The position numbers were made by a program, and so were the translations under genes. Positions 35,625 to 39,688 of a DNA stretch of 47,147 bases are shown piece after piece (position 1 is the first letter of the stretch; each line of letters starts with the position of its first letter). The notes under the pieces were generated by a model. It was not told the origin of the DNA. It worked only from the letters and a program-made list of their open reading frames with translations, and made no database searches. Source of the DNA: Synechococcales cyanobacterium 340R_concoct_173_sub (GTDB lineage Bacteria > Cyanobacteriota > Cyanobacteriia > Leptolyngbyales > Leptolyngbyaceae); NCBI GenBank assembly GCA_025354065.1, contig JANXNM010000460.1, positions 1 to 47,147 of the forward strand. The letters run 5' to 3'.

Positions 35625-36962
35625 ATGGCGTTAGAGCCTTGCACAGAAGTTCCCATTGCAGTTCTTCCGGATTTAAAAACCAGTAATGCATTGACTGATA
35701 ATAGTAGTGCTGAAAACTTTGTAGATTTGCCTGTCTTGAAAGAACGTGGGCAACGAGAAGTTTTTTGTGGTTTGACGGGCATTGTTTGGCTGCACCGCAA
35801 AATGCAGGATGCGTTTTTTTTGGTGGTGGGTTCTCGGACCTGTGCCCATTTAATTCAGTCGGCGGCAGGAGTGATGATCTTCGCGGAGCCGAGATTTGGG
35901 ACTGCGATTTTGGGAGAACGGGATTTGGCGGGGTTGGTGGATGCGAATGATGAACTCGATCGTGTGGTCGATCAGTTACTCAGTCGTCGCCCGGATATTG
36001 GCACCTTGTTCCTAGTAGGATCTTGCCCCTCTGAGGTGATTAAGCTGGATTTGGCGAAGGCTGCTGAACGCTTGAATCATCGGTTCTTCCCCAAGGTGCG
36101 GATTCTCAACTATTCCGGCAGTGGAATTGAAACTACGTTCACTCAGGGCGAAGATGCCTGCCTGGGATCAATGGTTCCAGTGTTGCCGCCCAGTCAAACC
36201 GATGAACCGCGTTTAATGATTGTCGGAAGCCTGGCTGATGTGGTCGAGGACCAGTTCAAACGGCTCTTTGATCAACTCGGGATCGGCCCGGTGTCGTTCT
36301 TTCCGCCGCGTCGTGCTGCGAATTTGCCGCCCGTGGGGAAAGGGACGAAGTTGTTGTTAGCTCAGCCATTTTTAAGTGAAACTGTCCGAGCGCTGATCAG
36401 TCGTGGGGCCGAATTGTTGCCGTCGCCCTATCCCTTCGGTATTGAAGGCACCACCGCTTGGTTACGCACCGCAGCCGATGCTTGGACTATTGATCCCGAT
36501 CGATTTGAATCGGCGATCGCTCCAGCAGCAACCCGTGCCAAGACTGGTTTAGAGCGATACCGACAAGTGCTGAATGGTCGCAAAGCGTTTCTGTTTCCCG
36601 ATTCGCAATTGGAGATTCCGATCGCTCGGTTTTTGTCCCGTGAATGTGGCATGGAATTGGTGGAAGTGGGAACGCCTTATATCGATCGGTTGCTAATGGC
36701 TCAGGAAATTAAATTATTACCCCAAGGGACGATGATTTCCGAAGGTCAGGATGTGGAAAAACAACTCGATCGCTGTCGTGCAGCTCGCCCCGATATTACG
36801 GTTTGTGGATTGGGTTTGGCGAATCCGTTGGAAGCGGAAGGCATGGCGACGAAATGGTCGATCGAATTGGTCTTTTCCCCGCTCCATGGCTATGATCAAG
36901 CAGCGGATTTAGCCGAACTGTTTGCCCGTCCCTTCGATCGGCGCAGCAGGCTTACTATTTAA
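35625..36962 (+). CDS. bchN: Light-independent protochlorophyllide reductase subunit N, purple-bacterial type
   Basis: ATG 35625 was chosen for its AGGAGA site; 445 residues. Subunit N forms the catalytic NB tetramer that reduces protochlorophyllide with electrons from L. The cluster ligands are Cys48 (REVFCGLTG), Cys73 (GSRTCAHL), and Cys134 (GSCPSEV); spacings 25 and 61 equal those of Rhodobacter BchN Cys26/51/112. The text follows the proteobacterial type ([58 protein letters not shown]), not the usual cyanobacterial ChlN (FCPISCVAWLYQKIEDSFF). It is first in the N-B-L operon. CGATCG motifs are frequent, so base usage resembles the host. Confidence 0.94.
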
Positions 36963-37029
36963 TCTCTAGCTAATTTCTAGCTGATCCCCAGACTCTCCTA
37001 AAGACAACCCTTACCCAGAATCTAGACCT

Positions 37030-38718
37030 ATGGAATTGACCCTGTGGACTTACGAAGGACCGCCCCATGTAGGCGCGATGCGGATTGCAACAGCGATGGA
37101 GGGCGTGCATTATGTACTCCATGCGCCTCAGGGTGACACCTACGCAGATCTATTATTTACGATGATTGAACGGCGCGATCGGCGACCTCCTGTCACTTAC
37201 ACAACCTTTCAGGCGCGGGATCTGGGGGGCGACACCGCAGAAATGGTGAAAACTTCGGTCCGCGAAGCCTATGATCGGTTTAAGCCCCAGGTGATGTTGG
37301 TGGGGGAAAGCTGCACGGCGGAGTTAATCCAGGATCAAGCGGGTGGCCTCGCGAAGAGTATGGGACTGCCGATCCCCGTAGTGGGTTTAGACTTGCCTGC
37401 CTATTCTAAAAAGGAAAACTGGGGAGCTAGTGAGACGCTGTACCAGTTGGTTCGCACCTTACTATTACCCTCCGTTCCAGCACCCGGAACCAAACGCCCC
37501 GATCGCGATCCCCAAGTCCGTCCTAAGGCCAACATCATTGGTCCGACTGCGCTGGGGTTCCGTTGCCGAGATGATATTCGAGAGGTGATGAAATTGCTGG
37601 CGGAAATCGGTGTGGATGTGAATGTGATTGCGCCTATGGGTTCGACCCCCGATGATCTCAAACGCATTCCCGATGCAGACTTTAATATTTGTCTCTACCC
37701 CGAAATCGCGCTCACAACCTGCAATTGGTTGACTCGTAGCTTTGGACAGCCGACCGTGAGAACGGTGCCGATCGGGGTGGGTGCAACCCGTGATTTCATT
37801 GCGGAAATTGGCAAGGTGGCCAACATTGATGTCAGTGCGGCATTGGAACGATCGCAGGCGGATACCTTAGGGGCTTGGGATGCAGCGCGATTGAGTTCTG
37901 GTGCAGAACCAGGGGCTTCGCGGTTGCCTTGGTATTCACGATCGGTGGACTCGACCTATCTCACGGGTAAGCGCGTGTTTATCTTCGGGGATGGGACTCA
38001 TGTCTTGGCTTCGGCGCGGATTGCTACAGAAGAGCTTGGATTTACCCTCGTCGGCATTGGCACTTACAGTCGGGAATTTGCGCGGGAAGTGCGGGAAGTC
38101 GCGAAAAAACATGGTCTCGAAGCGGTGATTAGTGATGATTACCTTGCAGTCGAGGAAAAGGTCGCGGAATGTGCGCCAGAACTTGTCCTAGGAACACAAA
38201 TGGAACGCCATATTTCCAAACGCTTGGGCATTCCTTGCGCAGTGATTTCGGCCCCGATTCATGTTCAAGATGTACCCGCTCGCTACTCTCCTCAAATGGG
38301 TTGGGAAGGCGCGAATGTGATTTTTGATAGTTGGGTGCATCCGTTGATGATGGGTCTAGAGGAGCATTTGATTGGTATGTTCCGCGAAGACTTCGAGTTT
38401 GCAGAAGGTCATATGAGCCATTTGCATACGGCACCCCATACAGAAACCAAAGTCTCCGAAGCACCAAGCATTGAGAATTTGATCTCAGTAGCGGTGGGGG
38501 AAACGTCGATCGCAACGGGATCCCGATCGGAATCAACGGCGGTGGCTGAATTGCCGGGAACGCACTGGACCTTGGACGGAGAAGCGGAGTTGAAAAAGAT
38601 TCCGTTCTTTGTTCGGGGCAAGGTGAAACGGAATACTGAAAAGTTTGCCAGCGATCGGGGTATTACCGCCATTACGATCGATACCCTTTACGAGGCAAAA
38701 GCACAAATTGGTCAATAG
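37030..38718 (+). CDS. bchB: Light-independent protochlorophyllide reductase subunit B, purple-bacterial type
   Basis: The 562-residue partner of N donates Asp36 (HAPQGD) as the unusual fourth ligand of the NB [4Fe-4S] cluster, as in Rhodobacter BchB. Its start [20 protein letters not shown] and the [51 protein letters not shown] and [20 protein letters not shown] blocks match the proteobacterial form. Typical cyanobacterial ChlB instead starts MKLAYWMYAGPAHIGTLR. A ~60-residue low-conservation region lies around 475-515, as in BchB. It begins 67 bases after bchN and has no clear ribosome-binding site. Confidence 0.95.
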
Positions 38719-38785
38719 GCTCAGCAAATCGGCTTTAGTTTATTCAAACCTTGACTCATTTAGAATTCAAAATTAGGAGCTTACG

Positions 38786-39688
38786 ATGGTAGTTTTAAAC
38801 GCGCATCCCCCTTCAATCACGAAGTGTAACGACAGCGACGGCAGTGTGCAGGTGTTCCAAGATCCCAGTATGAAAATTGAAGGGGCATTGGTGATCGCGG
38901 TTTATGGTAAGGGCGGCATTGGCAAATCCACGACCTCTTCCAATCTATCGGCAGCCTTTTCTCACTTAGGTAAGCGCGTGCTACAAATAGGCTGCGATCC
39001 TAAGCATGACAGTACCTTCACCTTAACCAAGAAAATGGTTCCTACGGTAATTGATATTTTGGAAACTGTGGATTTCCATTCCGAAGAATTGCAGCCTAAT
39101 GACTTTATGTTTGAAGGCTACAACGGGGTTATGTGTATTGAAGCGGGTGGTCCTCCTGCGGGAACGGGCTGTGGTGGATATGTTACAGGGCAAACGGTAA
39201 AATTATTGAAAGAGCATCATTTACTGGAAGACACCGATGTTGTAATTTTCGATGTTTTGGGTGATGTGGTTTGTGGTGGATTTGCGGCTCCGTTGCAACA
39301 TGCGCACTATTGCTTAATTGTCACGGCTAACGATTTTGATTCTATTTTCGCAATGAATCGGATTGTGGCTGCCATTCAATCCAAGGCAAAGAACTATCGT
39401 GTTCGTTTAGGTGGCATCATTGCGAATCGGAGTGAAGACACGGATCAAATTGATAAGTTCAACGATCGGGTTGGTCTGAAAACCTTGGCGCATTTTCGGA
39501 CTGTGGATGCAATTCGGAAGAGTCGTTTGAAGAAATGCACGGTGTTTGAAATGGACCCAGAACCGGAAGTTTTGGCAGTACAACAGGAATACCTGAAGTT
39601 AGCTAAAGCAATGCTGGATGATGTTACCCCGTTGAGTGTTGAACCGTTGAAGGATCGCGAAATCTTTGACTTGTTGGGGTTTGATTAG
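38786..39688 (+). CDS. bchL: Light-independent protochlorophyllide reductase subunit L (iron protein), purple-bacterial type
   Basis: The 300-residue NifH-like ATPase passes electrons to NB. Walker [10 protein letters not shown] lies at 41-49. Cys129 (GTGCGGYV) and Cys163 ([12 protein letters not shown]) hold the intersubunit [4Fe-4S] cluster; their spacing of 34 equals that of BchL. The protein has a ~35-residue N-terminal extension before the P-loop with GSVQVFQDP, a mark of purple-bacterial BchL (GSVQVHD...), and ends [15 protein letters not shown] as they do. Standard cyanobacterial ChlL begins almost at the P-loop and ends differently. AGGAG lies ahead of ATG 38786. This gene ends the operon; a hairpin terminator follows. 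Confidence 0.95.

What the first reader, a model, noticed from the sequence alone, without database searches (positions are those of the whole stretch)
35625..39688. A purple-bacterial type light-independent protochlorophyllide reductase operon (bchN-bchB-bchL) in a cyanobacterium
Directly seen: N-B-L gene order, BchL with a 35-residue extension containing GSVQV, BchB beginning [14 protein letters not shown], BchN with [17 protein letters not shown], and ligand spacings equal to those recalled for Rhodobacter (25 and 61 in N, Asp36 in B, 34 between the two Cys of L). Established: ordinary cyanobacteria have chlL-chlN together and chlB elsewhere, with clearly different sequences. Inference: the operon came from a proteobacterium, probably replacing or supplementing the native enzyme. 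High CGATCG density suggests it has adapted to the host and is not a recent arrival or contaminant. Whether this has been reported for this lineage is unknown to me.
Basis: partly seen in the sequence, partly recalled or inferred. Interest (0 to 1): 0.88.

Follow-up and report, generated by a model that had tools for sequence, protein, structure and literature searches.

The report
Imported purple-type chlorophyll enzyme in cyanobacteria
A filamentous cyanobacterium carries three genes for making chlorophyll in the dark whose closest kin outside cyanobacteria are Gemmatimonadota and purple-bacterial genes, and in the nine relatives that could be checked this imported set has replaced the native enzyme.

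Summary
Real, but part of a wider pattern. Window 35625-39688 encodes complete BchN, BchB and BchL with all ligand residues. N and B are 37-40% identical to native cyanobacterial ChlN/ChlB; all three fall with Proteobacteria and Gemmatimonadota. The host is not alone: ten loci (window, Pseudanabaena types, a Dolichospermum, Phormidesmis priestleyi, two uncultured) form a clade (100/100), sister to picocyanobacteria (97/95) and then Gemmatimonas (100/99) in the concatenated tree; BchN alone does not join the two cyanobacterial groups. Transfer into Prochlorococcus/Synechococcus is published; I found no report for the filamentous clade. It is replacement: each of 9 filamentous relatives has one DPOR set, the imported one, plus LPOR. 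Dolichospermum G115 has BchB 90-94% Pseudanabaena-like where two housekeeping proteins are 61-63%, and a native chlB remnant 99% identical to an intact native gene; 13 of 16 genomes of its genus have a complete native-type chlB. The cassette lacks the bchH-sized gap seen in 35 of 37 non-cyanobacterial loci, and 8 of 10 loci share a 17-base promoter element resembling, not significantly, an RpaB site. The window's own genome is not held, so loss of its native genes is inferred.

The parts
35530..35547 (-). HLR1-like site (GTTGCAAAGGTTTACAGC on the - strand), 13 of 16 defined consensus positions
   Evidence: the + strand 17-mer at 35532-35548 is identical in the window, four Pseudanabaena-type loci (L001, L002, L202, L204) and G115 (L201); 16/17 in L005, 14/17 in L203. 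Not significant by consensus score (shuffle P 0.315).
35578..35583 (+). TATAGT, -10-like hexamer inside the conserved AAATATAGT block
   Evidence: 29 bases after the element here, 28 in 6 others; promoter role inferred
35612..35616 (+). AGGAG, likely ribosome-binding site of bchN
35625..36962 (+). bchN, DPOR subunit N (445 aa from the conserved start; ORF reaches back to 35592)
37030..38718 (+). bchB, DPOR subunit B (562 aa)
38786..39688 (+). bchL, DPOR iron-sulfur ATPase (300 aa) with N-terminal GSVQV region and DFD patch
33613..35205 (+). left neighbour: SpoIID-domain protein, host gene
   Evidence: many of the named relatives are Leptolyngbya-type cyanobacteria
39846..41312 (-). right neighbour: phosphoglucosamine mutase glmM, host gene
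   Evidence: nearest named Alkalinema pantanalense 73%

Best explanation
The operon encodes a working dark-operative protochlorophyllide reductase (DPOR) of the purple-bacterial type that serves as the DPOR of an Alkalinema-like filamentous cyanobacterium in place of chlL/chlN/chlB. BchL, loaded with ATP, passes electrons from ferredoxin through its [4Fe-4S] cluster to the BchN-BchB tetramer, which reduces the C17=C18 bond of protochlorophyllide without light; LPOR presumably does the same in light and oxygen. Shown here: gene content, ligands, tree placement, single-set replacement in relatives, and a conserved upstream block. Inferred: (a) the cassette reached cyanobacteria from a proteobacterium or gemmatimonad, possibly once, with bchH left out; (b) it then spread between cyanobacteria as a self-contained promoter-N-B-L unit, landing at different sites and displacing the native genes, as seen nearly in the act in Dolichospermum; (c) its promoter is read by the host's low-light regulator RpaB; (d) the BchL tail still shields its cluster.
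For: Window identity to native: B 38-40%, N 37-38%; to the nine filamentous purple-type sets B 79-87%, N 82-88%. Concatenated tree: ten filamentous 100/100, with picocyanobacteria 97/95, with Gemmatimonas 100/99. One B, one N and one L over cut-off in each of G001-G005, G115, G205, G294, G358, LPOR in all nine. The closest by GlmM among the 25 genomes compared, G197 and G301 (69%), have native-level BchB and ChlL scores. Dolichospermum G115: BchB 90-94% and BchN 91-94% to five Pseudanabaena-type genomes while GlmM and homoserine dehydrogenase are 61-63%; relic chlB, 99% over 116 aa to native ChlB of G396. bchH-sized gap absent in 10 of 10 filamentous loci. 17-base element in 8 of 10, best match elsewhere 13 of 17 (35 picocyanobacterial and 46 other loci).
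Against: The window's genome is not held, so absence of native genes there is not shown. BchN alone does not make the two cyanobacterial groups one clade (0% of bootstrap trees; joining not rejected, AU p 0.183), and the quick N tree rooted on native ChlN puts picocyanobacteria at the base. The HLR1 consensus score is not above shuffles. DPOR identity of the window to Pseudanabaena types (85-88%) is only slightly above native ChlB/ChlN at a like or somewhat closer distance (79-85%, G042/G290 against G092), so the date of the window's own acquisition is open. G115's high CGATCG density (9 in 3.9 kb, 1.9 expected from host density) is not a foreign mark: against its own base composition the operon has 9 for 1.41 expected, the same excess as the host background (49 for 7.27). 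Activity is not tested.
Confidence: 0.85

Rival explanations
1. Two or more separate transfers from non-cyanobacterial donors, one into picocyanobacteria and one into filamentous cyanobacteria, rather than one entry followed by exchange between cyanobacteria.
For: BchN alone groups the filamentous set with beta/gamma-proteobacteria and Gemmatimonadota, not with picocyanobacteria (quick tree, support 62; union in 0% of bootstrap trees); the promoter element is not seen upstream of picocyanobacterial bchN (best 13 of 17 in 35 loci).
Against: BchL joins them at 100/97, the concatenation at 97/95; both lack the bchH gap; the joint tree is not rejected for N (AU p 0.183).
Confidence: 0.35
2. Old vertical inheritance: an early cyanobacterium held both DPOR sets and descendants lost one or the other.
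For: Window-to-Pseudanabaena DPOR identity is close to what native genes show at like distance; genomes of the Pseudanabaena family mostly have it (25 of 38).
Against: None of the 27 genomes searched for both B and N has a second full copy of either; the flanks differ outside Pseudanabaena but for one ORF; 13 of 16 genomes of G115's genus have a complete native-type chlB while G115 has the imported one plus a native relic.
Confidence: 0.08
3. The operon is an addition: the window's host also keeps native chlL, chlN and chlB elsewhere.
For: Its genome could not be searched.
Against: 9 of 9 filamentous relatives with this cassette have only it.
Confidence: 0.07
4. Chimeric contig or contaminant.
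For: G+C at third positions is higher from 33.6 kb rightwards than over most of the left; SpoIID relatives gave no contig length shared with bchB relatives.
Against: glmM and the genes beyond share the higher G+C; CGATCG density is similar inside and outside; P0003 (BchB 98%) and P0124 (GlmM 93%) both list a longest contig of 18,789 bases; five BchB clusters at 93-98% exist besides the window's.
Confidence: 0.03

Closest known systems
Prochlorococcus marinus DPOR (PDB 2ynm) and picocyanobacterial bchNBL
   Same: Best-scoring solved relative of all three proteins; purple-type, GSVQV tail and DFD patch, no bchH gap; transfer is published (PMC7842958; PMC7948495 calls P. marinus the one exception; passages read).
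   Different: Separate clade, BchB 64-72% identical; the promoter element was not found (best 13 of 17 in 35 loci); unrelated filamentous hosts.
Rhodobacter BchNB and BchL (3aek, 8vqh, 3fwy, 6uyk; organism recalled for 3aek, 8vqh and 6uyk)
   Same: Aligned end to end, with the N-terminal region and DFD patch shown for 6uyk.
   Different: Non-cyanobacterial phototrophs sampled here mostly have a bchH-sized gap between B and L (35 of 37 loci; Rhodobacter itself was not among them); lower scores.
Native cyanobacterial ChlL/ChlN/ChlB (2xdq; Thermosynechococcus, organism recalled)
   Same: Same reaction (established) and the same ligand columns.
   Different: 34-40% identical in B and N; no GSVQV tail (0 of 9), NGFDA in place of NDFDS (9 of 9); chlB lies apart from chlN in the 16 native genomes used.
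Phycocyanin genes regained with their HLR1 sites in Acaryochloris marina (PMC11633204, passages read)
   Same: A photosynthesis gene set gained by transfer that probably brought regulatory sites along.
   Different: Different genes; there on one plasmid.

Membership tests
DPOR (ferredoxin:protochlorophyllide reductase, ATP-dependent) | All three subunits, over curated cut-offs | tested here: met
   N 510.6/419.95, B 603.3/490.35, L 438.6/345.15 bits (TIGR01279, 01278, 01281); the narrower B models NF002790 and NF002789 are under cut-off
DPOR (ferredoxin:protochlorophyllide reductase, ATP-dependent) | NB cluster ligands: three Cys in N, one Asp in B | tested here: met
   N C59, C84, C145; B D36
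DPOR (ferredoxin:protochlorophyllide reductase, ATP-dependent) | L: Walker A and two cluster Cys | tested here: met
   GKGGIGKS at 41, C129, C163
DPOR (ferredoxin:protochlorophyllide reductase, ATP-dependent) | Light-independent protochlorophyllide reduction | not testable with these tools
   needs an assay
Purple-type (BchLNB) branch | Falls with proteobacterial/Gemmatimonadota sequences, apart from native cyanobacterial ones, for each subunit | tested here: met
   Chlorobi, Chloroflexota and Heliobacteria not sampled
Purple-type (BchLNB) branch | Flexible N-terminal region with GSVQV in BchL | tested here: met
   present in the window; exact GSVQV in 8 of 10 filamentous, 36 of 47 pico, 27 of 37 other, 0 of 9 native
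Purple-type (BchLNB) branch | Operon order N-B-H-L | tested here: not met
   no room for bchH (71-base gap); shared with picocyanobacteria, so read as secondary loss
Native cyanobacterial ChlLNB | ChlB/ChlN sequence type, chlB unlinked from chlL-chlN | tested here: not met
   37-40% identity; genes contiguous
RpaB-bound HLR1 promoter | Match to KTTACAWW-N2-KTTACAWW | tested here: inconclusive
   13 of 16, shuffle P 0.315 in the window; 14 of 16 in L005 (P 0.045) and L203 (P 0.06)
RpaB-bound HLR1 promoter | Binding by RpaB | not testable with these tools
   needs gel shift or ChIP

The most novel reading that the evidence does not exclude
A compact, self-regulated bchNBL cassette (own low-light promoter, no bchH), derived from one entry into cyanobacteria, has been passing from cyanobacterium to cyanobacterium and repeatedly sweeping away the native oxygen-sensitive DPOR, with Pseudanabaena as a likely hub and Dolichospermum caught just after the swap.
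Probability: 0.43. Interest if true: 0.7.

Novelty: new member of a known kind. Interest (0 to 1): 0.52.

Why it matters
DPOR is a textbook case of an ancient, oxygen-sensitive enzyme kept by oxygen producers, and purple-type DPOR in cyanobacteria has been treated as a peculiarity of Prochlorococcus and its kin (PMC7948495 calls P. marinus the one exception). Here it is also the DPOR of 25 of 38 genomes of the Pseudanabaena family, of a Dolichospermum (a bloom-forming genus, recalled) and of two Leptolyngbya-like hosts (window and Phormidesmis). That gives repeated natural replacements, one with a native relic, for asking why this version wins in oxygen-producing cells: oxygen tolerance, the BchL tail, or regulation. 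It also bears on DPOR trees used to date photosynthesis.

Tried and rejected
Chimera or contaminant: little support (shared 18,789-base contig length). SpoIID relatives gave no contig length shared with bchB relatives, so left linkage is not independently confirmed. No syntenic empty site: in the 11 relatives compared, SpoIID and GlmM lie over a megabase apart or on different contigs. HLR1 by consensus score: not significant alone. CGATCG as a foreign mark in G115: I first read it so (note); corrected for base composition the operon's excess equals the host's, so it is dropped as evidence of direction, and the odds of the novel case were lowered from 0.45 to 0.43. Rooting BchN on native ChlN puts picocyanobacteria at the base; read as long-branch attraction, not shown. 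Flanking genes shared between cassettes (ORFs of 90 aa or more): none outside the Pseudanabaena loci L001, L002, L202, L204, except one ORF of Phormidesmis L004 at 56-59% to three of those. Rfam and tRNA searches of the window: nothing.

Rows dropped before counts: tree rows needed 60% query cover, and L rows under 55% identity were dropped unless native; 7 of 16 native ChlL rows are missing there. The B quick tree used 20 of 52 picocyanobacterial and 10 of 16 native rows; the N tree 20 pico and 16 native, the L tree 18 pico and 9 native; the concatenation took 41 chosen rows, all with N, B and L. L005 was left out of the upstream alignment but scored. The identity table skips some pairs by design. 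The 8 of 10 count of the promoter element uses a pattern written after seeing the variants; one search gives plain match counts.

Purple or native type is read from bits per profile position.
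Full report
What is there. Three + strand ORFs at 35592-36962, 37030-38718 and 38786-39688 are DPOR subunits N, B and L by NCBIfam. Cluster ligands (N C59/C84/C145 counted from 35592, B D36, L C129/C163), Walker A, the DFD patch and the GSVQV tail are present. The best-scoring solved relative of each protein is Prochlorococcus marinus 2ynm; 2xdq (native Thermosynechococcus, organism recalled) scores far lower for N and B and is not listed for L.

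Host. No genome is held. The right-hand neighbour GlmM is nearest, among named proteins, to Alkalinema pantanalense (73%), then Leptolyngbya types; many named relatives of SpoIID on the left are also Leptolyngbya types. CGATCG density is 4.39 per kb in the operon and 4.99 outside.

Type and distribution. Against 386 genomes of the phylum, the window's BchB matches 183; the other 203 have no match. The listing, which is capped, shows three bands: 85-87% identity in 5 genomes, 64-72% in 57 (1.6-3.7 Mb, picocyanobacterial by size), and 34-38% for the listed natives. In the protein database the nearest besides the window's own are five clusters without organism name at 93-98%, then Dolichospermum, Anabaena and Pseudanabaena at about 86%.

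Trees. In quick single-gene trees the ten filamentous sequences form one clade (B and N 100, L 98) and native cyanobacterial sequences another (100). In the careful concatenated tree of 41 rows the filamentous clade has 100/100, its union with picocyanobacteria 97/95, and the next sister is Gemmatimonas and kin (L006, L007) at 100/99, inside a clade with beta- and gamma-proteobacteria, a Myxococcota bin and other Gemmatimonadota. Gene by gene, L supports the cyanobacterial union at 100/97, B at 87/73, and N does not (0% of bootstrap trees; AU p 0.183 against forcing it). One entry is favoured, not proven. Chlorobi, Chloroflexota and Heliobacteria were not in these trees.

Replacement. Each of nine filamentous genomes with the cassette has one B, one N and one L over cut-off and an LPOR. 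The closest to the window by GlmM among 25 genomes compared (G197, G301, 69%) have native-level DPOR scores. In the Pseudanabaena family 25 of 38 genomes score like the purple type, 7 like the native type (2 of these in pieces), and 6 have neither (type by bits per position). In G115's genus, of 16 genomes including G115 itself, 13 have a complete native-type chlB, G167 a native-like piece at a contig edge, G060 only a fragment, and G115 the imported one.

A swap caught late. Elsewhere in its chromosome lies a 120-residue C-terminal piece of native chlB, 99% identical over 116 residues to the full-length ChlB of G396. DNA similarity to the five Pseudanabaena-type loci starts about 230 bases before bchN and stops 15-36 bases after bchL; an IS605-type TnpB gene sits between N and B. 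So a promoter-plus-three-gene unit moved. The direction, Pseudanabaena to Dolichospermum, is inferred from distribution: the type is common in the Pseudanabaena family and alone among native-type congeners in Dolichospermum. CGATCG density gives no help: the raw count is high against the host (9 against 1.9 expected, Poisson P 0.0002), but the operon's richer G+C accounts for it (observed over composition-expected is 9 to 1.41 in the operon, 49 to 7.27 in the host background, 156 to 9.54 in the Pseudanabaena type G358). For the window the case for recent transfer is weaker: 85-88% identity to Pseudanabaena types where native DPOR at a like or somewhat closer distance gives 79-85%.

Cassette anatomy. 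In 35 of 37 non-cyanobacterial loci with both genes held, B and L are 3-5 kb apart; the gap holds bchH in the three checked. None of 10 filamentous loci has that gap; among 48 picocyanobacterial loci 45 have a gap under 1.5 kb and 3 have L on the other strand. Flanking genes are shared among four Pseudanabaena loci but, apart from one ORF of Phormidesmis, not with the other hosts. Upstream of bchN, a 17-base element is identical in the window, four Pseudanabaena-type loci and G115, 16 of 17 in L005 and 14 of 17 in L203; the best match is 11 or fewer in L003 and L004, 13 or fewer in 35 picocyanobacterial and 11 or fewer in 46 other loci. It stands 28-29 bases before TATAGT in seven loci. It resembles HLR1, the RpaB site: 13 of 16 in the window, 14 of 16 in L203 and L005, and it is 13 of 16 bases identical to a published HLR1 instance (ssl2162, PMC6331805, passage read). 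Against this, the consensus score is no better than shuffles in the window (P 0.315) and borderline in L005 and L203. With a start about 7 bases after TATAGT the element would lie near -60 to -43, close to the activating range quoted in PMC13421787 (passages read); the same review lists chlB as an RpaB target in PCC 7942. RpaB control is thus an inference.

How it works. From established DPOR biochemistry: ATP-bound BchL donates electrons to BchNB, which reduces protochlorophyllide in the dark. In Rhodobacter sphaeroides the BchL tail masks the cluster until ATP binds; it is described as not conserved in ChlL, with P. marinus the one exception (PMC7948495, passages read). The window keeps Ser and Gln of that motif, with DSDGSVQVF where the published motif is DGEGSVQVH.

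Print status. PMC7842958 (passages) states that BchLNB went from Proteobacteria into Synechococcus and Prochlorococcus. Nine full-text searches (open-licence papers only) and passages of PMC4337275, PMC4500134, PMC7947762, PMC9600594 and PMC12587747 showed me no report of purple-type DPOR in Pseudanabaena, Dolichospermum, Phormidesmis or Alkalinema; for the other hits I saw listings only, and most subscription papers are not held. The proteins are annotated as DPOR in public databases.

Noticed in passing
window 13790-18438: Urate/allantoin breakdown genes in a row: allantoinase PuuE with an allophanate-hydrolase-like N-terminal part, urate hydroxylase HpxO, and a UraD-amidohydrolase fusion.
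   Followed up: no
window 33.6-47.1 kb against 1-33 kb: Third-position G+C is higher on the right (0.46-0.58) than on the left (0.33-0.48); cause unknown.
   Followed up: no
L168 1492-1854 (-), genome G115: Native chlB remnant of 120 residues, 99% identical over 116 to a full-length native ChlB, in a Dolichospermum that carries the imported operon.
   Followed up: yes
L201 9798-11024 (-), genome G115: IS605-type TnpB gene inserted between bchN and bchB.
   Followed up: partly
genome G316 C1:19965-26379: In this picocyanobacterium-sized genome LPOR lies within a few kb of bchN and bchB, so both protochlorophyllide reductases are neighbours.
   Followed up: no
genome G005 C26:9949-11183: bchN reading is interrupted (one TAG in one piece, a second piece beside it) in Cyanobacteria bacterium M5B4; assembly error or decay.
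   Followed up: no
genome G060, genus of G115: Only a fragment of chlB found; possible DPOR loss or incomplete assembly.
   Followed up: no
L004 6634-8334: The ORF just upstream of bchN in Phormidesmis is 56-59% identical to one about 3.5 kb upstream of bchN in three Pseudanabaena-type loci; a possible trace of a larger transferred unit, or chance.
   Followed up: no
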